Below are positions 21,399 to 34,792 of a stretch of 64,000 nt of DNA, in pieces. Both the position numbers and the translations under genes were made by a program. The notes under the pieces were generated by a model. That model made no database searches and was not told where the DNA came from. It saw only the letters and a list, made by a program, of their open reading frames with translations. Position 1 is the stretch's first letter, and every line of letters begins with the position of its first letter. The DNA is from an uncultured Serinicoccus sp. Its GTDB lineage: Bacteria; Actinomycetota; Actinomycetes; Actinomycetales; Dermatophilaceae. Where the stretch lies: positions 248,001-312,000 of the forward strand of contig NZ_CANMUA010000004.1 in the NCBI RefSeq assembly GCF_947500995.1. The letters run 5' to 3'.

Positions 21399-22382
21399 TC
21401 AGCCCGGACCGGCACCCCGGGCGCGGGGGTGGGACTGGGCATACACCTCGCGCAGGTGCTGCGTCGAGACGTGCGTGTAGATCTGGGTCGTCGCGACCGA
21501 GGCGTGGCCGAGGAGCTCCTGCACGACGCGCACGTCCGCGCCACCGTCCAGCAGGTGGGTGGCGAAGGAGTGACGCAGGGTGTGCGGCGAGATCTCGGCG
21601 CGCAGGTCCGCCCGCTCGGCGGCGGCCTTGATCGCGGTCCACGCCGACTGCCGGGAGAGCCGCCCGCCACGGGCGTTGACGAAGACCGCCGGCGTGCCCC
21701 CGCCCCGCCCGGCCAGCGCGGGCCTGCCCCGGACCAGCCAGGCGTCGAGGGCGTCCCGCGCGTAGCGGCCCATCGGCACGACCCGCTCCTTGCGGCCCTT
21801 GCCGAACAGCCGCACCACCCCGCCGCTGCCCTCGTCCCCCCGGCCGAGCTCCAGGTCGTCCACGTCGAGGGCGATCGCCTCGCTCACCCGTGCGCCGCAC
21901 CCGTAGAGCACCTCCAGCAGCGCCCGGTCCCGCAGCGCGGCGGGGGTGTCCCCCACAGCGGCCGCGTGCAGCAGCCGCTCGACGTCGTCCACGGTCAGTG
22001 CCGTGGGCAGCCGGCGTGGTGGCGTCGGCGGGGTGACCTCGCGGGCGGGGTCGGCGATGGCCTCCCCCTCCACGGCGAGGAAGGTGTGCAGGCCGCGCAC
22101 CGCCACGACGGCCCGCGCCGCAGACGTCGCCGCGAGGGGCTGGTGCTCGTCGTCACCGGCACGCAGGTGGGCCAGGAAGCCGGTCACGTGCTGCTCGCTC
22201 ACCTCGCTCGGCGTCCGCACGCCCAGCCCGTCCAGGTAGTGCAGGTAGCGGTCCAGGTCACGCCGGTAGGCGCGCAGCGTGTGCTCGGACCGGCCGCGCT
22301 CCACCCTGAGGTGGTCCAGCCAGTCCCCGGCCGCACGCGTCAGCGGGGTGCGCTGGGTGCTCTCGGCCGCGGACGTGGTCAT
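21399..22382 (-). CDS. xerD: site-specific tyrosine recombinase XerD
   Basis: A 327-residue tyrosine recombinase that resolves chromosome dimers at dif with XerC and FtsK. It has an amino-terminal core-binding domain ([23 protein letters not shown]) and a catalytic domain with the full set Arg ([12 protein letters not shown]), Lys ([12 protein letters not shown]), His-x-x-Arg ([12 protein letters not shown]), His ([10 protein letters not shown]) and nucleophile Tyr (IYTHVS). The ATG at 22382 is preceded by GAGAGGA. A 22-base tandem repeat lies in the gap upstream. Confidence 0.94.
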
Positions 22383-22424
22383 GGACGCGATCCTCTCAGG
22401 TGCGGCATACCGAGGCCCCCGGGC

Positions 22425-22500
22425 GCGCGTCCGGTGGGTCGCGACCGCGCGTCCGGTGGGTCGCGACCGCGCGTCCGGTGGGTCACGACCGCGCGTCCGG
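22425..22500. repeat. 22-base tandem repeat, about 3.5 copies
   Basis: Copies start at 22425, 22447, 22469 and 22491 (the last partial), each beginning GCGCGTCCGGTGGGTC; copy 3 differs at one base. The array fills the gap between the divergent xerD and membrane-protein genes. Its reverse complement resembles the 22-base repeats at 31661-31740 (about 16 of 22 positions), so the two arrays look related. Confidence 0.85.
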
Positions 22501-22546
22501 TGCGGATCTGCCGCACGTCCGGCGCGGGTGGGTGGAGACTGCCCTC

Positions 22547-23161
22547 ATGCGCTGGTATGCCGATGCTCCCGCCCGCCGCTCCCGTCAGGTCGTCGCCGAC
22601 CTGCTCGTCCTCGGCTGGGTGGTCGCCTGGGTGCTCGTCGGCCGCCTCGTCTTCGACCTCGTCATGACCCTGGCCGCGCCGGCGGTCCCGCTGCGCGCGG
22701 CGGGGACCGGGCTCGAGACCCGGATGGAGGAGGTGGCGGGTCGGGTGACCGAGATCCCCCTGGTCGGCGACGAGCTGGACACGCCCTTCATCGGAGCCGC
22801 CGGGGTGGGGACCGACCTGGTCAGCGCCGCCGAGCGGCTGGAGTCGGGAGTGCGCACGGTCGCGTGGCTGGTCAGCGTGCTCTCGACCGTGACGCCCGTC
22901 CTCATCGTGCTGCTGCTCTGGCTGGTGCTCCGCCTCTCCTGGGTGCGCCGCGCCAGGTCCCTCGGCCGGGACCTCCTCGACCCGCGGTCCCAGGAGCTGC
23001 TCGCCCTGCGGGCCCTCGTGCACCAGCGCCCGCGCCGCCTGCAGGAGGTCCTGGACGACCCGGTCGCCGCGTGGCGATCGGGCGACCCCGTGGCACTGCG
23101 CACCCTGGCCGACCTCGAGCTCGCCGAGGTCGGGCTGCGGGGCGACCCCCGCCCGGAGTAG
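22547..23161 (+). CDS. conserved hypothetical membrane protein
   Basis: A 204-residue protein not assigned to a named family. Two hydrophobic helices are visible, at residues about 17-45 (VVADLLVLGWVVAWVLVG region) and 105-128 (LVSVLSTVTPVLIVLLLWLV region), separated by a periplasmic-side segment of about 60 residues containing VGDELDTPFIGAAGVGT. A basic cytoplasmic tail of about 75 residues follows. The start ATG 22547 has GGAG eleven bases upstream; longer readings into the tandem repeats have no ribosome site. The function is unknown. It converges on hisIE. Confidence 0.75.
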   Translation: MRWYADAPARRSRQVVADLLVLGWVVAWVLVGRLVFDLVMTLAAPAVPLRAAGTGLETRMEEVAGRVTEIPLVGDELDTPFIGAAGVGTDLVSAAERLESGVRTVAWLVSVLSTVTPVLIVLLLWLVLRLSWVRRARSLGRDLLDPRSQELLALRALVHQRPRRLQEVLDDPVAAWRSGDPVALRTLADLELAEVGLRGDPRPE

Positions 23162-23226: not shown

Positions 23227-23898
23227 TCAGCCGTGCCGGCGCCGCAGCACCCGCTCGACGTCGGCCAGCCCCAGGTCCCGCGAGCGCAGCAGCACCAGCA
23301 GGTGGTAGACGAGGTCGGCCGACTCACCGAGCAGCGCCTCGTCGTCCTGGGCGACCGCGGCGAGCGCCGTCTCGACCCCCTCCTCACCCACCTTCTGCGC
23401 GATCCGGCGCACGCCGCCGGTGAACAGCGTGGTGGTGTAGGACCCCTCGGGCAGCTCCAGCTGCCGCCCCCGCACGACCTCGTCGAGCTCGTGCACGAAC
23501 GACCCCGGGCGCGCGCCCGGGTCGAAGCACGTCCGCTCCCCCGTGTGACACGTCGGACCGGAGGGTATGGCGTGCAGCAGCAGGGTGTCCCGGTCGCAGT
23601 CGAGCTCGACCGCCTCGACGTGCAGCACGTTGCCGCTGGACTCCCCCTTCGTCCAGAGCGCCCCCCGGCTACGGCTGTGGAAGGTCGCGAGGCCGGTGTC
23701 GAGGGTCACCCTGAGCGCCTCCTCGTCGAGGAAGCCGACCATGAGCACCTGACCGGTGCGGGCGTGCTGGACCACGCCGGGCACCAGGCCGTCGGCCTTG
23801 GCGAAGTCCACGTCCGTGACCTGGAAGCCCACCATGTGCGGCGCCCGGTCGGTCTCGGAGGCCCCGGCATCCCCGGGGGTGCGTGGGGAGTCGGTCAT
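23227..23898 (-). CDS. hisIE: bifunctional phosphoribosyl-AMP cyclohydrolase/phosphoribosyl-ATP pyrophosphatase
   Basis: A 223-residue fusion that carries out the second and third steps of histidine synthesis. The HisI half (residues about 28-128) has [10 protein letters not shown] and metal ligands in [11 protein letters not shown] and [14 protein letters not shown]. The HisE half (about 135-222) has [20 protein letters not shown] and [16 protein letters not shown]. Most actinobacteria encode separate hisI and hisE, so the fusion is unusual and fits the gammaproteobacterial look of the operon. It is the last gene; its ATG overlaps the hisF stop (ATGA). Confidence 0.94.
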
Positions 23899-24704
23899 GA
23901 GGCCTCCCGTGTGGGGGTGGTGGGGGACGCCTCCAGGCGCACCTCGACGCCCGCCTGCGCCAGGGTCTGCTTGAGGGCGGGGATGGGGATGGACCCGTCG
24001 TGGAAGACGGTAGCCGCCAGGGCGCCGTCCACGTCGGCCTCGCGGAAGACGTCGACGAAGTGCTGGGGCGCCCCCGCACCGCCGCTGGCGACGAGGGGCA
24101 CCGGGCACACCTCGCGCACGGCCGCCAGCTGCTCGAGGTCGTAGCCGTCCCGGACGCCGTCGGAGCCCATGCAGTTGAGGACCACCTCGCCCGCCCCCAG
24201 GTCCACGACGCGGCGCACCCAGTCCAGGGTCGTCACCTCCAGCGCCCGCGTGGCGTCCGGGCTGCCGGTGAGCTGGCGGATCCGCCAGTGCCCGTCCTCG
24301 TCCCGCAGGCTGTCGACGCCGACGACGACGCACTGCACCCCGAAGGCCTCGGCGAGCTCACCGACCAGCTCGGGGCGCTGCGTGGCGGGGGTGTTGACGG
24401 ACACCTTGTCGGCCCCGGCGTGCAGGACGGCCCGGGCCGTGCCCACCGAGCGGATCCCGCCCGCGACGCAGAAGGGGATGTCGATGCTGCGGGCGACCCG
24501 CTCCACCCAGGCGACGTCCACGCCCCGCCCCTCGGGGCTGGCGGTGATGTCGTAGAACACGAGCTCGTCGGCGCCCGAGGCGGCGTACCGCTGCGCGAGC
24601 TCGACGATGTCGCCCATGTCCCGGTGGTCGCGGAAGCGGGTGCCCTTGACCACCCGGCCCTCGCGGACGTCCAGGCAGGGGATGATGCGGCGGGCCAGCG
24701 TCAT
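23895..24704 (-). CDS. hisF: imidazole glycerol phosphate synthase, cyclase subunit
   Basis: A 269-residue TIM barrel that, with HisH, closes the imidazole ring and releases AICAR. Seen: [17 protein letters not shown] at the amino end with the catalytic Asp, [27 protein letters not shown] and [11 protein letters not shown] with the phosphate site. The FYDITAS wording is that of enterobacterial and xanthomonad HisF; actinobacterial HisF usually reads FLDVTAS (from memory). It overlaps hisA and hisIE by four bases each. Confidence 0.94.
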
Positions 24705-25501
24705 ACCTGCTCCTCCTGGACCGCGTCGCCGACGGTGAGCCGGCCCTCGAGCAGCGCCTTGCCGAGGATGATGCCCGAGCACCCGTGCTTCTTGGCCGCG
24801 CGGACGTCGTCCACGGACCGCGCCCCGCCCGAGGCCTGGACCTCCAGCGCCGGGTTGGACCGCGTGAGCATCGTGTAGAGGTGGAAGTTGGGCCCCGAGA
24901 GGGTGCCGTCGCGGCCGATGTCGGTGCACAGCACGTGCCGCAGACCCGACCCCTGGTAGTGGTGCAGGGTGGTCGTGAGGTCCTGCTCGCCGACCGAGGT
25001 CCAGCCGGAGGTGGGCAGCACCCAGCGCCCGTCCTCGCCGATCCTCGTGTCGAGGGCGACGGTGATGCGGTCCGGGCCGACGCGGTCCAGCCAGCCCGCG
25101 ACCGTCTCCGGCTCGCGGACGGCCAGCGAGCCGACGACGACCCGCTCGGCGCCGGCGTCCAGGAGCTGCTGCACGTCGTCCAGGCTGCGCACCCCTCCCC
25201 CGGTCTGCACCCGCAGCCCGGTGGTCTCCACGATGGTGGTCAGCGTCTCGCCGAGGGTGTAGCCCCCGGCCCGCGCGGCGTCGAGGTCGACGAGGTGCAG
25301 CCAGGCGGCGCCGGAGCGGGCGTAGTTCTCGGCGACCGCCACCGGGTTGTCGGTGTAGCGGGTCTCCTGGTCGTAGTCGCCCCGCAGGAGGCGGACCACG
25401 GCCCCGCCGCGCACGTCGATCGCGGGGTAGACGGTGAACGGTCCGGTGTGGGTCACGTGGATCTCTCCGGTGTCGGCTTCGGGGGCCATGCGTGGTGTCA
25501 T
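24701..25501 (-). CDS. hisA: ProFAR isomerase (HisA)
   Basis: A 266-residue TIM barrel isomerising ProFAR to PRFAR. Seen: [22 protein letters not shown] with catalytic Asp, [37 protein letters not shown] with the second Asp, and [10 protein letters not shown]. Actinobacteria normally carry PriA, which also does the TrpF reaction and has a different amino end (LLPAVDVADG-type). This protein instead resembles dedicated xanthomonad HisA, so a separate trpF may be needed. The start ATG 25501 overlaps the hisH stop; an internal ATG at 25489 is possible. Confidence 0.93.
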
Positions 25502-26100
25502 CGTTCGACCTCGTGGAGGAAGTTTCGCAGAAACCTCGCCCCGAGCGCGGAGGAACGCTCCGGGTGGAACTGCGCGCCCCACCTCAGGCCCGAGCGCACG
25601 ACCGCGCTCCAGCGGCCCCCGTGCTCGGTCGCGGCCAGCGTGTGCGCCCCCGACGGGGCGGCGTAGGAGTGGACGAAGTAGGCCCGGTCCCCCTCCTCGA
25701 TGCCGGTCAGCAGCGGGTCCTCGACGAGGTCGACGAGGGAGTTCCAGCCCATGTGCGGCACGCGGACGCCAGGACGCGGTGGTATGCCGCGCACCTCGCC
25801 CGGGACGAGGCCGAGGGTCTCGACCCCGCCGTCCTCGGCGGAGCGCTCGAAGAGCAGCTGCATCCCCAGGCACACGCCGAGCAGCGGCGCCTGCACCTGG
25901 TGGAGCACGTCGACGAGCCCGAGCTCGCGCAGCCGGCGCATGCCCGCCCCGGCGGCGCCCACGCCAGGGAGGATGACCCGGTCCGCGGCCAGGATGTCGC
26001 CGGGGTCGGCGGTGAGCCGGCTCGTGGCACCGAGCCGTTCGAGGGCGTAGCTCACCGAGCCGATGTTGGTGCCGCCGCCGTCGACGAGCGCGACCCTCAC
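25498..26100 (-). CDS. hisH: imidazole glycerol phosphate synthase, glutaminase subunit
   Basis: A 200-residue class I glutamine amidotransferase that feeds ammonia to HisF. Seen: [25 protein letters not shown] (oxyanion region), [11 protein letters not shown] with the nucleophile Cys, YFVHSYAA and [10 protein letters not shown] with the His-x-Glu dyad. The GTG start at 26100 overlaps the hisB stop (GTGA), and its own stop overlaps the hisA start. Confidence 0.94.
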
Positions 26101-27167
26101 AGGACGCCCTTGGTCGAGGGCAGCTCGGCCGAGTCCCCCTGCCGGGCGATGCCCATCCGCAGCGCGCGGGCGACCGCCTTGAAGCCGACCTCGATCTTGT
26201 GGTGGGTGTTGCCGCCGGTGACCGACAGGTGCAGGGTGCAGCGCATGGCGTCGGCGAAGGAGCGCCAGAAGTGCTCGACCATCTCGGTGGAGAAGTCGCC
26301 GACGCTCTCGCGGTCGAAGCTGCCCTCGTAGGCGAAGTAGGGCCGCCCGGACAGGTCGATCGCCGCGGTGGCCTGCGCCTCGTCCATCGGCAGGGTGAAG
26401 CCGTAGCGGCCGATGCCCCGCTTGTCCCCGAGGGCCGTCCGGATCGCCTCGCCGACCGCGAGCGCGACGTCCTCCACCGTGTGGTGGTCGTCGATGTGCA
26501 GGTCACCCGCGCAGGCGACCCGCATCCGGAAGCCGCCGTGCTTGGCCAGCTGGTCGAGCATGTGGTCGTAGAAGCCGATCCCGGTGGAGATCTCGCTGCC
26601 ACCGGTGGCGTCGAGGTCGACCTCGACCGTGATGCTGGTCTCGGAGGTGGCCCGCTCGACCCGGGCGGTGCGCGGGGCGTCGGCGAGCTCGTGCGCGATC
26701 TGCGCCCAGTCGACCTCGGGCAGCAGGTAGGTGCGGATGCCGAGGTGGTCGCCGAACTCGCGGTCGGTCGTCCGGTCGCCCACCATGACCGAGCGGTCCC
26801 AGTCGACACCGCGGTCCTTGAGCAGGTGCACGACCATGCCGATGCCGGGCTTGCGGGTCCACGGCGCGTCCGGCCCCGCGTGGTGGGGGTCGATGTGGAC
26901 GTCCCTGAAGGTCACGCCCTGGCTGGTGAGGACCTGCATGACCAGGCCGTGCGCGGGGTCGAAGTCGGCCTGCGGGAAGGACTCGGTGCCCAGGCCGTCC
27001 TGGTTGCTCACCATGACGAGGTCGAAGCCGGCAGCCTGGATCCGCAGCAGCGCGGGGATGACCCCGTCGACGAAGGCCACCTTCTCGAGCGCGTCCACCT
27101 GCTGGTCGTGCGGCTCGGTGATGATCGTGCCGTCGCGGTCGACGAAGCAGATCGGGCGGGGGCTCAT
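26097..27167 (-). CDS. hisB: bifunctional histidinol-phosphatase/imidazoleglycerol-phosphate dehydratase
   Basis: A 356-residue fusion, nearly the length of E. coli HisB (355). The amino half is an HAD phosphatase (FVDRDGTII with the nucleophile Asp; [26 protein letters not shown]). The carboxy half is the dehydratase ([51 protein letters not shown], ending STKGVL as E. coli does). Actinobacteria usually have a single-domain dehydratase plus HisN. The zinc loop of E. coli HisB (three Cys and a His) reads [15 protein letters not shown] here, lacking the cysteines. Overlaps with hisC and hisH are four bases. Confidence 0.95.
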
Positions 27168-28309
27168 GCGGGGGTCTCCTCGGTCGGGGTCGGGGTCGGG
27201 GTAGGGGTGGTGGGGTGGGCCAGGGCGCTGCGCAGGGCGGTCATCTCCGGGCCGGTGCCGATGGTGATGCGCAGCGCGTCGTCCAGGCCGGGGAGGTGGC
27301 GCATGTCGCGGACGACGATGCCGGCGGCCTCCAGGGTATGCAGCAGCGCGTCCGGGTCGTCGCACCGCACCAGGAAGAAGTTGGCCTCGCTGGCGTAGAC
27401 GGTGCGGACCTCGTCCAGGTCGCGCAGCCACCGCCCGACCTCGTCCCGCAGGCGCAGGACGTCACCGACGTGCTCCCCGGTCGCCTGCCGGGCCTCGGGG
27501 GCCAGGGCCCGCAGGGCGAGCGCGGTCACCGGCTCCGGCAGCGGGTAGGGCGCCTGCACCCGGCGCAGCACGGCCGTGAGGTCGGGGTGGGCCAGCGCGA
27601 TGCCGACCCGGGCGCCGGCCAGGGCGTGCGCCTTGGAGAGGGTGCGCAGCACGACCAGGGTGGGGTGCTCCTCCAGGAGCGTCACGGCCGAGCGCTGGGC
27701 CGCGAACTCGCCGTAGGCCTCGTCGACGACGACGACGGCCTGGTCGGCGAGCTCCTCGGCGAGCCGGGCCACGTCGCGCAGCGGGACGACCGACCCGGTG
27801 GGGTTGCCCGGCGAGGCGAGGAAGACCACGCGGGCGCCGTGCTCCCGGGCGGCCCGGGCGACGGCGGCGATGTCGACGTGCCAGCGCAGCCCGTCGTCCA
27901 CCTGCGGCACGTCGACCACGGGCACGCCGTGCAGGCGGGCGGACACGGCATACATCCCGAAGGTCGGGGAGGTGACCACGACACCGTCCCCGCCCGGGCG
28001 GCACAGGCTGCGCACGAGCAGCTCGATGGCCTCGTCGCTGCCGCGGCCGACGACGACCCGGTCGGGCGTCGTCGCCCACAGGTCGGCGAACGCCTCGACG
28101 AGCTCGGCGGGCTGCGGGTCCGGGTAGCGACGGGAGGCGCCCGAGGCGTCGGCGGGGTTGGCCACCCCGGACTCGTTGGCGTTGAGCCAGATGCGGTCCG
28201 TCGTGCCGGTGGGCGTGCTGGTGCGGGCCGAGGAGTAGCCGGCGAAGCCCCGCAGGTCGGGCCGCAGGAGGTCGACGGGGAAGGCGAGCTCCTCGCGCGC
28301 CGGGCTCAC
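27164..28309 (-). CDS. hisC: histidinol-phosphate aminotransferase
   Basis: A 381-residue fold-type I aminotransferase that converts imidazole acetol phosphate to histidinol phosphate using glutamate. Seen: [54 protein letters not shown] and [15 protein letters not shown] with the PLP Lys. The WLNANE and [12 protein letters not shown] wording matches enterobacterial and xanthomonad HisC; actinobacterial forms usually read LNTNENP (from memory). A Thr-Pro repeat forms the carboxy tail. The GTG at 28309 overlaps the hisD stop. Confidence 0.93.
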
Positions 28310-29619
28310 GTCGCCGCTCCCGCGCGCAGGCGGTCGAGACGACGGGTCACCGCGCGCTGGTGGGCGTGCAGCGCCTCGGCCTCGGAGAGGGTCACCGCGC
28401 ACGGTCCCACGGCCGCCAGCCCCTGCGGCGTGGCCTGCTGGACGGTCATGGCGATCTGGAAGGCCGAGACGTTGACCCCACCGGTGAAGCGCGCGGCGCC
28501 GGCCGTCGGGAGCACGTGGTTGGTGCCCGAGCAGTAGTCGCCCAGCGTCTCCGGCGTGTGGTCCCCGAGGAAGACCGACCCGGCCCGGTCGATGCGGTCC
28601 ACCCAGTCCTCGGCGTCGCGCAGGGCCAGGATGAGGTGCTCGGGGGCGTAGTCGTTGGAGACCTCCACCGCCTGGTCGAGGTCGGCGGTGACGACGAGCC
28701 GGGAGGACGCCAGCGCCTTGCGGGCGATCTCGGCCCGCGGCAGCGACTCGACCTGCTCGGCGACCTGGGCGGCGACGGCGGACGCGAGCTGCGGGCTGTC
28801 GGTGAGGAGGACGACCTGGCTGTCCGGGCCGTGCTCGGCCTGCGAGAGCAGGTCGGCCGCGACGAACTCGGGGTCGGCCCCCGCGTCGGCGATGACCAGG
28901 ACCTCCGAGGGACCGGCCGGCATGTCGATGCCGGGGCCCCCCTCGGCGGTGCTCACCTGCCGCTTGGCCTCGGTCACCCAGGCGTTGCCCGGCCCGAAAA
29001 GCTTGTCGCAGGCCGGGACCGACTCGGTGCCGTAGGCCATCGCGGCGACCGCCTGGGCTCCCCCGACGACGAAGACGTCCTCGATGCCGCACTCGGCCGC
29101 GGCCGCCAGCACGGCCGGGTCGGCGGTGCCGTCCGGCCGCGGCGGCGTGCAGAGCACGACCTCGGGGCAGCCGGCGAGCTGGGCCGGCACGCCCAGCATG
29201 AGCGCGGTGCTGGGCAGCGGGGCCGACCCCGCCGGGACGTAGAGGCCGACCCGCCGGATCGGGCGGACCACCCGCCGGCAGACGACGCCGGGAGCCGTCT
29301 CCACGGCATACCCCTGCTGCACGCCGGCCTCGTGGAAGGCGCGGATGCGTCCGGCGGCCTCGGCGATCGCGGCGCGCAGCTCCGGCTCCAGGGAGGCGAC
29401 CGCGGCGTCCCGGTCGGCCACCGGGACCCGGATGGCGGACGGCCGGGCGCCGTCGAACCGCGCCGTGAGCTCCACCAGCGCCTCGTCGCCGCCCTCGCGC
29501 ACCTGCTGCAGGATCTGCGCGACGCCGGCGGTGACCTCCGGCCCGGCGGCCGCGGTCCCGCGCCGCAGCGCCTCGCGCCGCTCGGTCTCGTCGAGCTCGG
29601 TCCAGGTGAGGATGTTCAT
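28306..29619 (-). CDS. hisD: histidinol dehydrogenase
   Basis: A 437-residue zinc enzyme that oxidises histidinol to histidine in two NAD-dependent steps. Seen: [83 protein letters not shown] with the Gln-x-x-His metal site, DYAPEHLIL with the catalytic Glu-His, and [12 protein letters not shown] with further ligands. The ATG at 29619 overlaps the hisG stop (ATGA). Confidence 0.95.
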
Positions 29620-30524
29620 GCCAGCATCCCCTCCACCGGCAGCACCATGAGGTTGTGCGCACCGGAGCGCTTGAGGTCCTCCAGCCGCGCCCACGAGACC
29701 GGGCCGTGCACGAGCATCTGCAGCGCCACCTCGTCGCGCCCCTCGACGGCCATGACCGTCGGCTCGTGGCCCTCGGGCAGCAGCCCGAGGACGGTGTCGA
29801 GACCGCTGCGCGCGGTGCGCAGCATGAGCAGCCGGGACTCCTTGAGCTGCACGGCCCCGTCGAGCCGGCGCAGCAGCAGGTCGGCGATCTCCTGGCGCCC
29901 GTCGTCCAGGGTCCGCCCCGGCCCGGCGATGACGGCCTCGCTGTGCAGGATCGTCGTCACCGGGGTGAGCTGGTTGGCCCGGAGGGTGCCGCCGGTGGAG
30001 ACGAGGTCGCACACGACGTCGGCCTGGCCCAGCCGCGGGGCGATCTCGACCGAGCCGTTGAGCACGACCGGGTCGGCCTGCACGCCCTGCTCGGCCAGCC
30101 AGCGGCCGAGGGTGTGCGGGTAGGACGTGGCGATCCGCAGGCCGGCCAGCTGCTCGGGCCCGGTCCACTCCTGCTCCTCGTCGATGGCGATGTCGAGGCG
30201 GCAGGTGCCCCACCCCAGCTGGCGCCACTCGGTGAGCTCCACCCCGCGCCCCTGGGCCTCCCGGGCCAGGCCGTGCTCGACGAGCACGTTGCGCCCGACG
30301 ATCCCGAGGTCGCACACGCCGTCGGCGATGAGCCCGGGGATGTCGTCGTCACGGACCAGCAGCAGGTCGACCGGCAGGCTCTCGCCGTAGCAGAACAGCC
30401 GGTCCCGGCTCTCCCGCCAGGTCAGCCCGCAGGAGGCGAGCAGCTCGCGGGCCGGGTCGCCCAGGCGGCCGGACTTCTGGATCGCCACGCGCAGGCGCTC
30501 GCGGGGCTGGGCAGGCGGGGTCAT
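29616..30524 (-). CDS. hisG: ATP phosphoribosyltransferase, long form
   Basis: A 302-residue enzyme catalysing the committed step, ATP plus PRPP to PR-ATP. It is the long form with a carboxy-terminal regulatory domain that binds histidine, so it does not need HisZ. Seen: [84 protein letters not shown]-type block and [14 protein letters not shown] at the end. The IQKSGRL start matches gammaproteobacterial HisG. AAAGG precedes ATG 30524. It is the first enzyme gene, 89 bases after the TrpR-like regulator. Confidence 0.94.
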
Positions 30525-30613
30525 CGGGGCCTTTCCGGAGGATCAGGGTTCTCGCACCGTCACGGTGCTCGGGGGTGGGGCTGGGGGTGGGGCGGCGCAC
30601 GCCGTCGGGCGCC

Positions 30614-30949
30614 TCAGGCGGGAGGGGCGGACGCCGGCTGCGCGCGACGATGCTCCAGGGCGGCACGGTAGCCCCCGGCGCCGCCCTCCACGCAGCGGGC
30701 GATGCGCCCGACCGTCGTCACGCTCACGCCGGTGACCTCGTGGATCTGGCGGTACGACATACCCTCGGCGAGCAGGGGGACGACCGACCAGCGGTCGGCC
30801 AGGGCCTCGATCTCGGCCGGGGTGCACAGGTCGTCCAGGAAGGCGTCCACGGACGCGGGGTCGCGCAGAGCGGCGAGGACGTCGGCGAGGTCCGCCCGCA
30901 CCCGGGCGCGGGTGGCGACGGCGGAGCCGTGGGTGTCCCGCTGCTTCAT
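30614..30949 (-). CDS. TrpR-like (YerC/YecD-type) regulator, probable his repressor
   Basis: A 111-residue protein of the TrpR superfamily, YerC/YecD group. The core LDDLCTPAEIEALADRWSVVPLLAEGMSYRQIHEVTGVS region includes the helix-turn-helix at residues about 58-82 (MSYRQIHEVTGVSVTTVGR). Xanthomonadales and Bacillales have relatives linked to histidine genes and called HisR in regulon reconstructions (from memory). It precedes hisG in the same direction and is read from a promoter containing two TGATA-CAC elements (30995-31014), so autoregulation is likely. AAAGGA precedes ATG 30949. Confidence 0.85.
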   Translation of the reverse strand: MKQRDTHGSAVATRARVRADLADVLAALRDPASVDAFLDDLCTPAEIEALADRWSVVPLLAEGMSYRQIHEVTGVSVTTVGRIARCVEGGAGGYRAALEHRRAQPASAPPA

Positions 30950-30994
30950 GCACGTCCTTTCCGAGTTCGACCTGACGGGTCCGACCCGCCTCTG

Positions 30995-31014
30995 GTGTAT
31001 CAACGTGTTATCAC
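30995..31014. promoter_or_regulatory. candidate operator of the his regulator
   Basis: GTGTATCA at 30995-31002 is followed by GTGTTATCA at 31005-31013, two near-identical elements about one helical turn apart. They lie between the divergent hisR (start 30949) and cyclophilin (start 31029) genes, about 46 bases upstream of hisR. They are inferred to bind the TrpR-like protein; AT-rich elements stand out here in a 72% GC genome. Confidence 0.5.
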
Positions 31015-31028
31015 GCTAGCACGCACCG

Positions 31029-31616
31029 ATGGGCTGTCCCAAAGCGTCGTGCGAGGAGGCTCCGGAGCCTCCTTCGGACGTCACGACCTACGGCCCGCAG
31101 GACCTCCCCGCCCCGCTGAGCGGGACGGAGCCGGTCACCGCGACCGTGGAGACCACGTGCGGTGACGTGCAGCTGGAGCTGTACGCCGAGCAGGCGCCGC
31201 AGACGGTCGCGTCCTTCGCCTTCCTCGCGGAGGAGGGCTACTGGCAGGACAGCCCGTGCCACCGGCTCACGACGGAGGGCATCTACGTGCTGCAGTGCGG
31301 CGACCCGACGGGCAGCGGCCAGGGCAACCCCGGCTACGGCTACGGCATCGAGAACGCCCCGGAGACCGGGATGTACCCGCCCGGCACCCGGGCGATGGCC
31401 CGCACCCAGGACCCGAACAGCAACGGCGGCCAGTTCTTCGTCGTCTACGAGGAGACACAGCTGCCGGTCGAGGGCGGCGGCTACAGCATCTTCGGGCAGG
31501 TCACCGAGGGACTGGACATCGTCGAGGCGATCGCCGCCGAGGGCACCGACACCGGTGGCGGCGACGGTGCCCCCGCCCAGCCGATCAGCATCCTGTCCGT
31601 CACCGTCAACGGCTGA
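31029..31616 (+). CDS. cyclophilin-type peptidyl-prolyl isomerase
   Basis: A 195-residue cyclophilin catalysing cis-trans isomerisation of prolyl bonds. Seen: VETTCGDVQLELYAEQAPQTVASF-type start, DSPCHRLTTEGIYVLQCGDPTGSGQG, MARTQDPNSNGGQFFVVYE and YSIFGQVTEGLDIVEAI. Actinobacterial relatives beside relA and hisS normally have a membrane or lipoprotein leader before the CEEAPEPPS segment; here an in-frame stop at 31017-31019 limits the start to ATG 31029, leaving only MGCPKAS ahead of it. The export signal therefore looks lost. No ribosome site is visible. Confidence 0.85.
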   Translation: MGCPKASCEEAPEPPSDVTTYGPQDLPAPLSGTEPVTATVETTCGDVQLELYAEQAPQTVASFAFLAEEGYWQDSPCHRLTTEGIYVLQCGDPTGSGQGNPGYGYGIENAPETGMYPPGTRAMARTQDPNSNGGQFFVVYEETQLPVEGGGYSIFGQVTEGLDIVEAIAAEGTDTGGGDGAPAQPISILSVTVNG

Positions 31617-31660
31617 CCGCCCACGGCTGACCCCCGACGGCTGACCGCCCCCTCCCCCGC

Positions 31661-31740
31661 ACAGGACGCGTGGTCCGCACACACAGAACACTTAGTCCGC
31701 GCGCACAGGACGCGTCGTCCGTACGCACCGGACGCGCGCC
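31661..31740. repeat. 22-base degenerate tandem repeats, about 3.6 copies
   Basis: Repeats start at 31661, 31683, 31705 and 31727 with an exact 22-base period: ACAGGACGCGTGGTCCGC, ACAGAACACTTAGTCCGC, ACAGGACGCGTCGTCCGT, ACCGGACGCGCG. They fill the gap between the convergent cyclophilin and hisS genes. The unit matches the reverse complement of the repeat at 22425-22500 at about 16 of 22 positions. Confidence 0.8.
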
Positions 31741-31749
31741 CAGCGCGCC

Positions 31750-33147
31750 TCAGACCAGCGGTTGGGCCAGCTCGACCCGCAGCGCGCTGACCACCTCGTC
31801 CCGGGGCACGGTGAACTGGTCCTGGCGGCGCAGGTCCTTGAGGGTCACCGTGCCGTCGGCGACCTCCTGCGCCCCCAGCAGGGCGACGAAGCGGATCCCG
31901 GCGCGGTCGGCATACCGCAGCTGCTTGCCGAGCTTGCCGCCGTCGAGGACCGCCTCGGTGTTGATGCCGCCGTGCCGCAGCTGGGAGGCGAGCGCGAGCT
32001 GGTCGTCGAGGAGCTCGGGGTCGACCTGCGGCACGAGGACCTGCACGGTCGACTCCCCCGCCGAGGCGTCGATGAGGCCCGCCTCGCGCAGCTGCCAGAA
32101 CAGCCGGGACAGCCCGATGGAGATGCCGACCCCGGGCAGCCGGGACCTGGTGTACTGCCCGGCCAGGTCGTCGTAGCGCCCGCCGGAGCAGATCGACCCC
32201 AGCTCGGGGTGCTCGTCGAGCGTCGTCTCGTAGACGGTCCCGGTGTAGTAGTCGAGCCCGCGCGCGATGGAGAAGTTGAGGCAGTAGTTGCTCTCCGGCA
32301 CGCCGAGCGCGCGGACCAGCGCGAGCACCTCACGCAGCTCGGCGACCCCCTCGGCCAGCGCGCTGCTGCCGGCGGACCCCGCCTCGACCTCCGCCAGCCG
32401 GGCCAGGGCGTCCTCGTGCCCCGTCGAGCGGGTCTGCACGAAGGACAGGATCCGCTCCACGACCGGCTCGGCGAGCCCGAAGCCCTCGCCCGTGAGGGTG
32501 GTCCTCAGGTAGTCGGCGCCGCGCTTGTCGAGCTTGTCGACCTCGCGCAGGACCGCCGCCTGGACGTCGCCGTCGGTGATGCCGAGGTCCTCGTAGAACC
32601 CGCGCAGCAGGCGGCGGTTGTTGACCTGGATGGTGAAGGTGCCGATCGCCAGGTCGGTGAAGATCGCGTTGATGATCGCGGGTGCCTCGGCGTCGTGGCG
32701 GACCGACAGCTCGCCGGAGCCGATGATGTCGACGTCGCACTGGTAGAACTCGCGGAACCGCCCCCGCTGCGGCCGCTCACCACGGTAGACGCGCTGCATC
32801 TGGTAGCGCCGGAACGGGAAGGTCAGCTGGTGCTCGTGCTCGGCGACGTAACGCGCGAGCGGCACGGTGAGGTCGAAGCGCAGCGCCAGGTCCGGCAGCC
32901 CCTCCTCGCCGTCCTCGGCCCGCGCCTTCTCCAGCGCCCCGGTGGACTGCACGAAGTAGACCTGCCGCTCGGTCTCCCCGCCGGTCTTGGTGAGCAGCAC
33001 GTCGGAGCGTTCGAAGACCGGTGTCTCGATGGGCAGGAAGCCGAACCGCTCGTAGCCGGAGCGGATCGCGTCCAGCATCCTCTGGAAGGCGACCTGCTCG
33101 GGTGGCAGCAGCTCGAGGACACCGGAGGGCGTGCGCGGGGAGATCAC
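31750..33147 (-). CDS. hisS: histidyl-tRNA synthetase
   Basis: A 465-residue class II synthetase. Seen: [39 protein letters not shown] and [20 protein letters not shown] (motif 2), [19 protein letters not shown] (histidine A) and [28 protein letters not shown] (motif 3), then the anticodon-binding domain. The wording, for example [23 protein letters not shown], is strikingly like xanthomonad HisS (from memory). TAGACT lies six bases before GTG 33147 with no ribosome site, so the message is probably leaderless. It stands where actinobacteria place hisS, after an MBL hydrolase and relA. Confidence 0.93.
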
Positions 33148-33241
33148 CGCAGGAGTCTATCGAGCGGTATGCCGTGCCCCGCCGCCCCGGGCACGGCACG
33201 GGCACGGGCGCATCGGGCCGACCCGAGGCATAGTGGAGGAC

Positions 33242-33940
33242 ATGAGCACCGCTGCCGCCGCCGAGCCACCCTCCCTCGCCCTGGCCACGGAGGGTGGCAT
33301 CACCCCCGCCCAGCTGCGGGAGGTGGGCGGCCAGCTCCAGCGCTTCCTGCTGGAGTACGAGTTCGGGCTGCGCGAGGTCGAGACCAAGATCGAGATCCTG
33401 CGCGACGAGTTCGCGCACATGCACGACTACAACCCCATCGAGCACGTCTCCAGCCGGGTGAAGTCACCGGACAGCCTGCGCGAGAAGGTGCTGCGGCGCG
33501 GGTTGAACCTCGACCTCGAGACCATCCGGCGCGAGATCACCGACATCGCGGGCATCCGGGTGTCGTGCAGCTTCGTCACCGACGCCTACCGCATCTTCGA
33601 CCTGCTGACCCAGCAGGACGACCTGACGATCCGGCGGGTGTCGGACTACATCGCCGAGCCGAAGGAGAACGGCTACGCGAGCCTGCACGCGATCGTCGAG
33701 ATCCCGGTCTTCCTGTCCACCGGCCGGGTCGACGTGCCCGTGGAGGTGCAGCTGCGCACGATCGCCATGGACTTCTGGGCCAGCACCGAGCACAAGATCC
33801 ACTACAAGTACGACGGCAATGTGCCGGAGGGGCTGCTGACCGAGCTCAAGGACGCCGCGACCAGCGCCGCCGAGCTGGACGCCCGGATGCAACGGCTGCA
33901 CCGCGAGCTGCACGGGGGCAGCCCGCACACGCGCGCCTAG
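33242..33940 (+). CDS. small alarmone synthetase (RelA/SpoT-domain protein)
   Basis: A 232-residue protein consisting of a RelA/SpoT synthetase domain without HD hydrolase, TGS or ACT domains, as in YjbM/YwaC-type small alarmone synthetases that make (p)ppGpp or pGpp. Seen: HVSSRVKSPDSLREKVLRRG, ITDIAGIRVSCSFVTDAYRI with the Mg-binding Asp, YIAEPKENGYASLHAIVE, VPVEVQLRTIAMDFWASTEHKIHYK. The start ATG 33242 follows GGAGG. It diverges from hisS and its stop overlaps that of the MBL gene by four bases. Full-length RelA lies 4 kb away. Confidence 0.9.
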   Translation: MSTAAAAEPPSLALATEGGITPAQLREVGGQLQRFLLEYEFGLREVETKIEILRDEFAHMHDYNPIEHVSSRVKSPDSLREKVLRRGLNLDLETIRREITDIAGIRVSCSFVTDAYRIFDLLTQQDDLTIRRVSDYIAEPKENGYASLHAIVEIPVFLSTGRVDVPVEVQLRTIAMDFWASTEHKIHYKYDGNVPEGLLTELKDAATSAAELDARMQRLHRELHGGSPHTRA

Positions 33941-34653
33941 GCGCCAGCCGTGGGCGAGAGCCCGCTGAGGTAGGGGTTGGTGGCCCGCTCCCGCGCGATC
34001 GTCGTCGCCGGCCCGTGGCCGGGGAGGACGAGCGAGGAGTCGGCCAGCGGCAGCACGACGTCGCGCAGGCTGCGCCGCATCGCCGCCCCGTCCCCGCCCG
34101 GCAGGTCGGTCCGACCGATCGAGCCGGCGAAGAGGACGTCCCCCGAGATCACCGTCCGGTCCAGCTCCTGCGCCGGTATGCCGTCGGGCACCCCCGCGGT
34201 GGTGAACAGCACCGAGCCCTCGGTGTGCCCCGGCGCGTGGACCACCCCGATGCGCAGACCGGCGATCTCGAGGTCCTGCGCGTCGGCCAGCTCGACCACC
34301 TCCTCGGGCTCGGTCCACGTCGCGCGGCGCCCGAACTGCTGCTCCATGGCCAGGACCAGCTCCGGACCAAGGGAGGACAGCGGGTCCCGGAGGCGGTAGC
34401 GGTCGTCCGCGTGGATGTAGGGGCTGACGGCGGTGGTGCCCGCGCAGACCGGGGTCACGGCATACACGTGGTCGAGGTGCCCGTGCGTGAGCAGGACGGC
34501 GGCCGGACGCAGCCGGTGCTCGGCGAGGAGGTCCTGCACCCGTCGCTCGACCCCGATCCCGGGGTCGACGACGACGCACTCCTCCCCCTCGGCGGGGGCC
34601 ACGACGTAGCAGTTGGTGCCGAAGGCGTCGGCGACGATGCTGCGGACGAACAT
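33937..34653 (-). CDS. MBL-fold metallo-hydrolase (glyoxalase II-like)
   Basis: A 238-residue metallo-beta-lactamase-fold protein of the group annotated as hydroxyacylglutathione hydrolase-like. Seen: NCYVVAP, VVVDPGIG, the metal motif LTHGHLDHVYAVTPV, HAPGHTEGSVLF with the third His, ISGDVLFAGSIGRTDLPGG with the bridging Asp, and VLPGHGPATTIARE. TAGGGT ends seven bases before ATG 34653, which points to a leaderless message. It occupies the conserved place between relA/cyclophilin and hisS. The substrate is unknown; actinobacteria lack glutathione, so a mycothiol-linked or other thioester is possible. Confidence 0.88.
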   Translation of the reverse strand: MFVRSIVADAFGTNCYVVAPAEGEECVVVDPGIGVERRVQDLLAEHRLRPAAVLLTHGHLDHVYAVTPVCAGTTAVSPYIHADDRYRLRDPLSSLGPELVLAMEQQFGRRATWTEPEEVVELADAQDLEIAGLRIGVVHAPGHTEGSVLFTTAGVPDGIPAQELDRTVISGDVLFAGSIGRTDLPGGDGAAMRRSLRDVVLPLADSSLVLPGHGPATTIARERATNPYLSGLSPTAGA

Positions 34654-34792
34654 GGGACCGACCCTACGCACCGTCACCACCCGACCTCGTCCCGGTCGCC
34701 GACCGAGGCGTTGGGTAGGGTCGAGGGGTCAACGCCATGTCGAGGCGGCCCCGATGGCCGTGCTCGCGGTCCCTATCCGAGAGGCCACCACC

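What the first reader, a model, noticed from the sequence alone, without database searches (positions are those of the whole stretch)
23227..33147. Whole histidine operon looks transferred from a gammaproteobacterium
The order hisR-G-D-C-B-H-A-F-IE, a bifunctional HisB, fused HisIE, long HisG, a HisA unlike PriA, and a YerC-type regulator are the xanthomonad pattern (from memory), not the actinobacterial one. Several blocks are close to xanthomonad sequences: in His[14 protein letters not shown]; in His[15 protein letters not shown]; in HisF, FYDITAS. hisS, 0.8 kb away, looks similar. Codon use is now like the host, which suggests an old transfer.
Basis: partly seen in the sequence, partly recalled or inferred. 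Interest (0 to 1): 0.8.

Follow-up and report, generated by a model that had tools for sequence, protein, structure and literature searches.

The report
Histidine operon borrowed from a xanthomonad
An actinobacterium has swapped its own histidine-making genes, their control switch and the enzyme that loads histidine onto tRNA for a set from a distant group of bacteria, and the one old gene it kept appears to have been left with only its other job, making tryptophan.

Summary
Window 23227-33147 carries hisS, hisR (yerC), a HisR-type operator and hisG-D-C-B-H-A-F-IE, all of Xanthomonadales (Lysobacterales) type. In a careful ten-protein tree the block nests inside Xanthomonadales at 100/100. Bifunctional HisB was found only in this genus and Kytococcus: 6 of 119 family genomes, 1 of 396 across the phylum.

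Two points go further. In this genus the block stands where 8 of 8 same-family relatives keep native hisS, and native hisS is gone from the recipients checked. The old his cluster survives as a scar: hisD, C, B and H are missing while an interleaved unknown gene and priA remain, in 12 of 12 loci. No trpF was found in 31 genus genomes. PriA keeps its catalytic aspartates but has lost ProFAR-binding residues.

A 2026 paper (PMC13055916) showed that the PriA of a relative ("SubTrpF2") has only TrpF activity and explained it by hisA duplication and recruitment to a new locus. The evidence here contradicts that origin: PriA is the native orthologue in its ancestral place, and HisA came with the block. 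One acquisition shared with Kytococcus is likely, not proven.

The parts
23227..23898 (-). hisIE, fused phosphoribosyl-AMP cyclohydrolase / phosphoribosyl-ATP diphosphatase, xanthomonad type
23895..24704 (-). hisF
   Evidence: 59-76% id to 26 Xanthomonadales rows, 25-48% to 16 rows of the native set
24701..25501 (-). hisA (ProFAR isomerase, not PriA)
25498..26100 (-). hisH
26097..27167 (-). hisB, bifunctional histidinol-phosphatase / IGP dehydratase
27164..28309 (-). hisC
28306..29619 (-). hisD
29616..30524 (-). hisG (long form)
30614..30949 (-). hisR (yerC), TrpR-family repressor
   Evidence: role from PMC9413887
30993..31018 (.). predicted HisR operator of proteobacterial type, about 45 bases upstream of hisR
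   Evidence: best site of the 64 kb window for a matrix trained on 25 Xanthomonadales sites only
31750..33147 (-). hisS, xanthomonad-type histidyl-tRNA synthetase, in the place of native hisS
31029..31616 (+). ppiB, native gene displaced into the block in this subclade
33937..34680 (-). MBL-fold gene: native left flank of hisS in relatives
22400..23161 (+). unknown gene ('Hyp22k'): native right flank of hisS in relatives
21399..22382 (-). xerD: native right flank

Best explanation
A block hisS-hisR-operator-hisGDCBHAF-IE was acquired from a lineage near the base of Xanthomonadaceae in the broad sense, most likely once, in a common ancestor of Ornithinimicrobium/Serinicoccus (the window's genus) and Kytococcus. 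It took over histidine synthesis, its regulation and tRNA(His) charging. Native hisS was lost; in the window's genus the foreign block stands in its place. Native hisD, hisC, hisB and hisH were removed, while priA was kept because these genomes have no trpF. PriA, relieved of its HisA duty, diverged into a TrpF-only enzyme. HisR is predicted to repress the operon at its co-transferred operator when histidine is plentiful. Shown here by sequence: origin, replacement, scar, absence of trpF, residue loss, operator match. Shown by others for a relative: TrpF-only PriA and HisA-only HisA. Inferred: single event, order of events, donor vehicle, HisR function in this host.
For: Distribution: full-length HisB in 6 of 119 family genomes, dehydratase part only in 109, no match in 4; 1 of 396 phylum genomes at E<=1e-70. 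Phylogeny: recipients inside Xanthomonadales 100/100, p = 8e-7 against excluding them; same picture; HisS with xanthomonads, 99*. Location: MBL-hisS-Hyp22k-xerD-parA in 8 of 8 same-family relatives; the foreign block lies between these flanks in the window and nine genus loci; the place is empty in 2 of 2 Kytococcus. Scar: glnA-glnE-unknown gene-priA-SseB without hisD/C/B/H in 12 of 12 loci, against hisD-C-B...hisH...priA in 13 of 13 same-family native loci. One HisG in 28 genus and 2 Kytococcus genomes; one HisS in G000 and 2 Kytococcus. TrpF in 0 of 31 and 0 of 2. PriA tree and residues. Operator. Experiments on a relative: PMC13055916.
Against: Single-gene trees are weaker: excluding recipients from Xanthomonadales is not rejected at 0.05 for HisC (p 0.07), HisH (0.27), HisA (0.14) or HisIE (0.82), and the recipients are not one group in the HisH and HisA trees. 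In HisS the position within xanthomonads is unresolved. Holding recipients and native actinobacteria on one side is not rejected (p 0.285 concatenated; 0.29, 0.55, 0.43 for HisG, HisD, HisC); I ascribe this to the very long native branch, which attaches almost anywhere. Housekeeping genes do not resolve Kytococcus as sister of the genus (57/35, alternative p 0.50; 81/80 against it), and the block lies elsewhere in Kytococcus. No near-identical donor was seen (best HisB 63-64%). The operator scores of two recipient loci (15.5 and 16.8 bits) only just exceed the best shuffle of the window (12.9).
Confidence: 0.92

Rival explanations
1. HisA and PriA arose by a lineage-specific duplication inside Ornithinimicrobiaceae, and PriA was then recruited to a new genomic neighbourhood (the explanation in PMC13055916).
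For: Both are PF00977 proteins and occur together in 31 of 31 genus genomes. The paper read its own tree that way.
Against: HisA sits with xanthomonad HisA and PriA with native PriA across a 100/100 split. The seven other enzymes, HisR and HisS are xanthomonad-like too. PriA's neighbourhood is the ancestral one minus hisD, C, B and H. The paper's main text has no word beginning Xanthomon or Kytococcus (its supplement was not seen).
Confidence: 0.03
2. A variant of the best explanation: two acquisitions, or one acquisition passed on sideways between Kytococcus and the Ornithinimicrobium lineage.
For: The block lies at different places in the two. Housekeeping trees do not unite them firmly. The best xanthomonad is closer to the window than Kytococcus is for HisG, HisD, HisC, HisH, HisA, HisIE and HisS. 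In the HisH and HisA trees the recipients are not one group.
Against: Recipients form one clade at 100/100 in the concatenated tree. Both carry the same scar with the same genes removed and the same unknown gene left. Their diverged PriA form one clade at 100/100.
Confidence: 0.22
3. The donor was not a xanthomonad; xanthomonads and these actinobacteria both took the block from an unsampled third lineage.
For: Xanthomonad HisS is itself unlike that of eight other gammaproteobacteria tested.
Against: Recipients branch inside Xanthomonadales, between lineages of that order, not beside them. The gene order and the operator match Xanthomonadales.
Confidence: 0.05
4. Assembly contamination or binning artefact.
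For: None beyond its foreign look.
Against: Native flanks, and the same block in nine more genus loci, several of them from single-contig genomes; host-like codon use.
Confidence: 0.01

Closest known systems
SubTrpF2, the PriA of Ornithinimicrobium/Serinicoccus (PMC13055916, 2026)
   Same: Same kind of organism, same co-occurrence of HisA and a diverged PriA, no TrpF, the same neighbours (glutamine synthetase, S8-type protease, catalase), the same changed substrate-binding positions 85, 105, 145 and 170.
   Different: Their stated origin is a hisA duplication and recruitment to a new context. Here the origin is a whole foreign block, with PriA at its ancestral locus. Their main text has no word beginning Kytococcus or Xanthomon. 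Gln at position 19, which they list as a SubTrpF2 change, is present in 5 of 5 native same-family PriA sampled here.
SubHisA of Corynebacterium and SubTrpF of Actinomycetaceae (introduction of PMC13055916; details recalled)
   Same: PriA loses one of two activities after genome change (transfer, gene loss, or a co-occurring trpF).
   Different: Corynebacterium is the mirror case: a trpF arrived and PriA became HisA-only (recalled). In Actinomycetaceae genes were lost (start of the abstract of PMC5404923). Here a whole his block arrived and PriA became TrpF-only.
HisR regulon of Xanthomonadales (PMC9413887)
   Same: hisR as first gene of the his operon, a 20-bp palindrome TGTAnTArnnnnyTnTTACA just upstream (passages).
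   Different: That survey's HisR-bearing Actinobacteria are Coriobacteriales and Eggerthellales with another motif; a member of the window's order with the proteobacterial motif is not mentioned in the passages seen.
Plasmid-borne his operon of Deinococcus radiophilus (NZ_CP086381.1)
   Same: Operon with bifunctional HisB and fused HisIE outside Proteobacteria.
   Different: Groups with other gammaproteobacteria, not Xanthomonadales, and lies on a plasmid.

Membership tests
Whole-operon xenologous replacement (transfer from Xanthomonadales) | Every gene of the block has the foreign affinity | tested here: met
   10 of 10 proteins closest to Xanthomonadales outside the recipients by median identity; the concatenated tree agrees, but 4 of 8 single-gene AU tests are not significant at 0.05
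Whole-operon xenologous replacement (transfer from Xanthomonadales) | Close relatives carry a different, native set | tested here: met
   109 of 119 family genomes match only over the dehydratase part of HisB, 4 have no match; native clusters in 13 same-family loci
Whole-operon xenologous replacement (transfer from Xanthomonadales) | Native set lost | tested here: met
   12 of 12 scar loci without hisD/C/B/H; single HisG in 28 + 2 genomes; single HisS in 3 genomes; native hisI, hisE and hisN not searched
SubTrpF2 (TrpF-only PriA) | PriA co-occurs with HisA and no trpF | tested here: met
   31 of 31 genus genomes, 2 of 2 Kytococcus
SubTrpF2 (TrpF-only PriA) | Catalytic Asp11, 130, 175 kept; positions 85, 105, 145, 170 changed | tested here: met
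   12 of 12 recipients changed at all four, 8 of 8 natives unchanged
SubTrpF2 (TrpF-only PriA) | Arg19 replaced by Gln as a specific change | tested here: not met
   Gln in 12 of 12 recipients but also in 5 of 5 native same-family PriA; Arg in 3 of 3 from other families
SubTrpF2 (TrpF-only PriA) | Complements a trpF mutant but not a hisA mutant | not testable with these tools
   Shown for O. murale in PMC13055916; not for the window species or Kytococcus
HisR (proteobacterial type) | TrpR-family protein, first gene of the his operon | tested here: met
   PF01371 82 bits, TIGR02531 58 bits against cut-off 42; order
HisR (proteobacterial type) | Palindromic operator of the proteobacterial type upstream | tested here: met
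   24.6 bits, next unrelated site -5.9, maximum 12.9 in 100 shuffles of the window
HisR (proteobacterial type) | Histidine-dependent binding and repression | not testable with these tools
   histidine-dependent binding shown for Ruminococcus gnavus HisR (passage)

The most novel reading that the evidence does not exclude
A self-contained foreign histidine module (synthetase, repressor with its operator, eight enzymes) crossed phyla in one step, replaced the resident hisS in its own place, made the resident his genes dispensable, and so turned a bifunctional resident enzyme into a specialist. The published duplication origin of SubTrpF2 is wrong, and Kytococcus shares the event.
Probability: 0.75. 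Interest if true: 0.78.

Novelty: new variant of a known kind. Interest (0 to 1): 0.7.

Why it matters
It is a nearly complete natural experiment: donor type, recipient, replaced genes, scar and functional outcome are all visible, and one outcome (TrpF-only PriA) has already been measured in a relative. It is the mirror of the Corynebacterium case (recalled) and makes the question 'does gain of a complete pathway force a promiscuous enzyme to specialise?' testable in living relatives on both sides of the event. It replaces a published duplication explanation, offers a reason why Kytococcus lacks the usual actinobacterial HisN phosphatase (PMC5516325), and is a case of an essential tRNA synthetase replaced together with the biosynthetic pathway of its amino acid and the pathway's regulator.

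Tried and rejected
Rejected: duplication of hisA (tree, synteny); assembly contamination; an RNA leader or T-box at the block (nothing of the kind at gathering thresholds in window, L024, L188 or the native loci L195 and L201; the two matches were a tRNA and a cobalamin riboswitch); a chimeric HisS with a native end (mean identity to xanthomonads above that to natives in every 40-residue stretch of the four recipients examined); a sigma-70 promoter or terminator near hisR by consensus (none found, uninformative at this G+C).

Led nowhere or weak: AU tests holding recipients with native actinobacteria do not discriminate. A test of Xanthomonadales as one clade gave p = 1.6e-66 but includes two rows (L225, L228) of unsteady place, so I rely. 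One further test and one returned no result. Housekeeping markers do not settle whether Kytococcus and the genus are sisters; they cover unequal gene sets, and three of 26 rows (G047, G289, G297) were left out as too empty; one of 20 (G043) did not enter the tree. In one search, 14 of the 51 rows were dropped, among them three deep Xanthomonadales rows (L225, L227, L228). Per-gene trees used 7 of 11 recipient rows and 16 of 27 Xanthomonadales rows. In one search the column used for position 145 was wrong; one search corrects it. In one search my priA query began two codons after its GTG start; this does not affect the results. HisS and HisF of L039 (G008) and several his genes of L037 (G025) are split by frameshifts and were used as the best piece, or left out. 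Match lists were cut; the per-genome best E-values were complete. No structure was predicted.

Literature searches on the origin. No title or abstract start in those listings reports a xanthomonad origin for these genes; only open-licence full texts are held and most listed papers were not opened, so this is not proof of absence. Papers seen: PMC13055916 (abstract, sections 4 and 17, part 1 of section 28, passages), PMC9413887, PMC5516325, PMC3035214 and PMC10138114 (passages only); others only as search listings.
Full report
WHAT IS THERE. The window is part of contig 4 of a 3.8 Mb genome with about 73% G+C. On the minus strand lie hisS (31750-33147), yerC/hisR (30614-30949) and eight genes hisG-D-C-B-H-A-F-IE (30524 down to 23227), each overlapping the next by 4 bases; ppiB (31029-31616) lies between hisS and hisR on the plus strand. 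NCBIfam names all ten block proteins above curated cut-offs. One of its arguments does not discriminate: 15 of 15 native HisG examined are long too, 290-301 aa.

WHO HAS IT. In 31 of 31 genomes of the genus a HisA-HisF pair lies side by side (in two, G008 and G025, broken into pieces), and a third, weaker PF00977 protein (128-166 bits) lies elsewhere. Full-length bifunctional HisB was found in 6 of 119 family genomes: all 4 drawn from the genus and both drawn from one other genus; 109 matched only over the dehydratase part and 4 not at all. In the order 1 of 248 genomes had it (235 with any match; best E-value of the others 7e-61) and in the phylum 1 of 396 at E<=1e-70, each time the window's own genome. 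The other genus is Kytococcus: the single contig of G323 is 2,785,024 bases, exactly the published length of K. sedentarius 541T (PMC3035214, passages). The window's genus is very probably Ornithinimicrobium/Serinicoccus: the neighbours, changed residues and co-occurrence described in PMC13055916 match; the name itself comes from no call.

WHERE IT CAME FROM. Median tblastn identities of the window proteins to Xanthomonadales and to the native actinobacterial set are: HisG 59 and 31, HisD 62 and 42, HisC 50 and 35, HisB 59 and 48 (dehydratase part only), HisH 57 and 39, HisA 56 and 33 (native set: PriA and HisF rows), HisF 70 and 46, HisS 67 and 42 (native set includes 3 Bacteroidota rows); HisIE (58) and HisR (60) have no usable native counterpart. 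The Xanthomonadales rows were chosen partly by HisB similarity. Among 151 genomes of the order of Stenotrophomonas the best HisB was 63-64% identical. In a careful tree of ten concatenated proteins (37 rows, 2993 columns) the seven recipient rows (5 genus, 2 Kytococcus) form one clade (100/100). It sits with 9 Xanthomonadales rows (100/100), with eight further Xanthomonadales rows outside. Excluding the recipients from Xanthomonadales is rejected (log-likelihood loss 156, p = 8e-7). Two quick trees with all 11 recipient rows agree. Single genes are weaker: p = 0.0009 HisG, 0.029 HisD, 0.07 HisC, 0.002 HisB, 0.27 HisH, 0.14 HisA, 0.027 HisF, 0.82 HisIE; the recipients form one group in 6 of 8 of these trees, not in HisH and HisA. 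Tests that hold the recipients together with native actinobacteria do not reject (p 0.285 concatenated; 0.29, 0.55, 0.43). I read this as the free attachment of a very long native branch, and it is a result against a stronger claim. HisS of the recipients falls with xanthomonads against native and Bacteroidota HisS (99*), unresolved inside xanthomonads, and is closer to xanthomonads along its whole length.

THE PLACE OF INSERTION. In 8 of 8 same-family relatives examined the order is DUF349-ppiB-MBL-hisS-Hyp22k-xerD-parA-scpB; a ninth, from another family, lacks the right-hand part. In the window and nine genus loci the foreign block is followed by Hyp22k-xerD-parA, and MBL precedes it in the window and 7 of the nine (not detected in L033; L036 is too short on that side). 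In L034 and L042 the matches at both ends lie 12-42 bases from the native flanks; in four loci (L031, L032, L033, L036) 2-3 kb of other sequence lies between hisIE and Hyp22k, as it also does after hisS in some natives. One HisS was found per genome in the three recipient genomes searched whole, so native hisS is gone there. In 2 of 2 Kytococcus the same neighbourhood is kept with MBL beside Hyp22k and no hisS; the foreign block lies about 0.57 Mb away in G323 and on another contig in G284, with a catalase gene between hisS and hisR.

THE SCAR. In 13 of 13 same-family native loci hisD, hisC, hisB, hisH, priA and an SseB gene follow in this order (2-4 kb of other sequence before priA in L193, L198 and L202). 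An unknown gene lies between hisB and hisH in 10 of 13; glnE is seen before hisD in 7 of 13 stretches fetched. In 12 of 12 recipient loci (10 genus genomes, 2 Kytococcus) the order is glnA-glnE-unknown gene-priA-SseB, with no match to hisD, hisC, hisB or hisH (two of the ten genus loci, L028 and L038, are 90.5% identical DNA). In the window's genome the stop codon of the unknown gene overlaps a GTG start of priA (L003:1483-1486). So priA has not moved; the genes around it were removed. In the protein tree these PriA (10 rows) join native PriA across a 100/100 split from all HisA, on a long stem (1.04 changes per column), while the block's HisA joins xanthomonad HisA.

WHAT PRIA DOES NOW. TrpF (PF00697) was found in 0 of 31 genus genomes, 0 of 2 Kytococcus, 0 of 13 other family genomes and 1 of 7 from other families; the same searches found it in 14 of 14 control genomes. 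PriA of 12 of 12 recipients keeps Asp11, Asp130 and Asp175 but has lost Arg85, Thr105, Trp145 and Thr170, which 8 of 8 native PriA sampled keep (numbering from PMC13055916). PMC13055916 reports that the Ornithinimicrobium murale PriA rescues a trpF but not a hisA mutant of E. coli, and HisA only the hisA mutant. That work calls it SubTrpF2 and derives it from a hisA duplication and recruitment to a context not reported before; its main text has no word beginning Xanthomon or Kytococcus. The scar and the trees contradict that derivation. One of its five key changes, Arg19 to Gln, is present in 5 of 5 native same-family PriA sampled here, from genomes without trpF, and so is not by itself a mark of the specialised form. 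Presence of the other trp genes was not tested here.

REGULATION. A matrix built from 25 Xanthomonadales sites upstream of hisR (consensus TAATGTAaTAACGCGTTAtTACATTA) has its best site in the whole window at 30993-31018, just upstream of hisR: 24.6 bits, next unrelated site -5.9, maximum of 100 block-shuffled windows 12.9. In 11 of 11 other block loci scanned (9 genus, 2 Kytococcus) the best site also lies upstream of hisR, at 15.5-33.0 bits; in the seven loci without the block that were scanned (L024, L025, L190, L257, L231, L195, L201) the best score is -5.1 or less. PMC9413887 (passages) gives TGTAnTArnnnnyTnTTACA for proteobacterial HisR and a different motif for its actinobacterial HisR, and shows histidine-dependent DNA binding for Ruminococcus gnavus HisR. 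The regulator and its site were therefore kept together through the transfer.

HOW IT MOST LIKELY HAPPENED. A block with both the synthetase and a self-regulated pathway entered next to or in place of hisS; two HisS and two pathways may have coexisted, and the native copies were lost, sparing the two genes of the cluster with other uses (priA for tryptophan; the unknown gene). Order and vehicle are inference; a his operon on a Deinococcus plasmid shows that such blocks can lie on mobile DNA. Whether it was one event is likely but open: shared scar, shared PriA clade and shared block clade speak for it; the housekeeping trees do not resolve it. Host-like codon use and 63-64% best identity suggest that it is old.

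Noticed in passing
L024:9078-9719 and native loci such as L195:7881-8507: An unknown gene without Pfam match lies between hisB and hisH in 10 of 13 same-family native clusters and was kept in 12 of 12 recipients after the his genes around it were lost; its function is probably not tied to histidine.
   Followed up: partly
L188:5477-7099 and L024:11348-12826: A catalase gene lies between hisS and hisR in both Kytococcus loci, and a related one (58% identity) lies near the priA scar in the window's genome.
   Followed up: partly
window 33131-33940: A RelA/SpoT-domain gene on the plus strand overlaps the start of hisS and the end of the MBL gene. In five of nine other genus loci (L031, L032, L034, L035, L042) MBL and hisS are within 65 bases, so it is absent from that spot there; the other four could not be judged.
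   Followed up: partly
window 31029-31616: ppiB lies before the MBL gene in the eight same-family natives and before hisS in L032, L033, L034, L037 and L042, but between hisS and hisR in the window, L031, L035, L036 and L039: a local rearrangement.
   Followed up: partly
L188, L189 (Kytococcus): PMC5516325 (passage) found no HisN phosphatase in Kytococcus and suggested Cg0911 instead; the bifunctional HisB seen here would supply that step.
   Followed up: partly
Genomes G375-G379 versus G380-G387: HisS of five xanthomonads is unlike that of eight other gammaproteobacteria tested (those match the window HisS at 31-35% over pieces), so the donor lineage may itself have an imported HisS.
   Followed up: no
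window 30993-31026 and homologous sites: In the recipient loci the two best operator matches are shifted by 8 bases and overlap, reminiscent of tandem TrpR binding (recalled).
   Followed up: no
G008 and G025 (L039, L037): Several block genes are split by frameshifts in these two genomes; sequencing error or decay was not distinguished.
   Followed up: no
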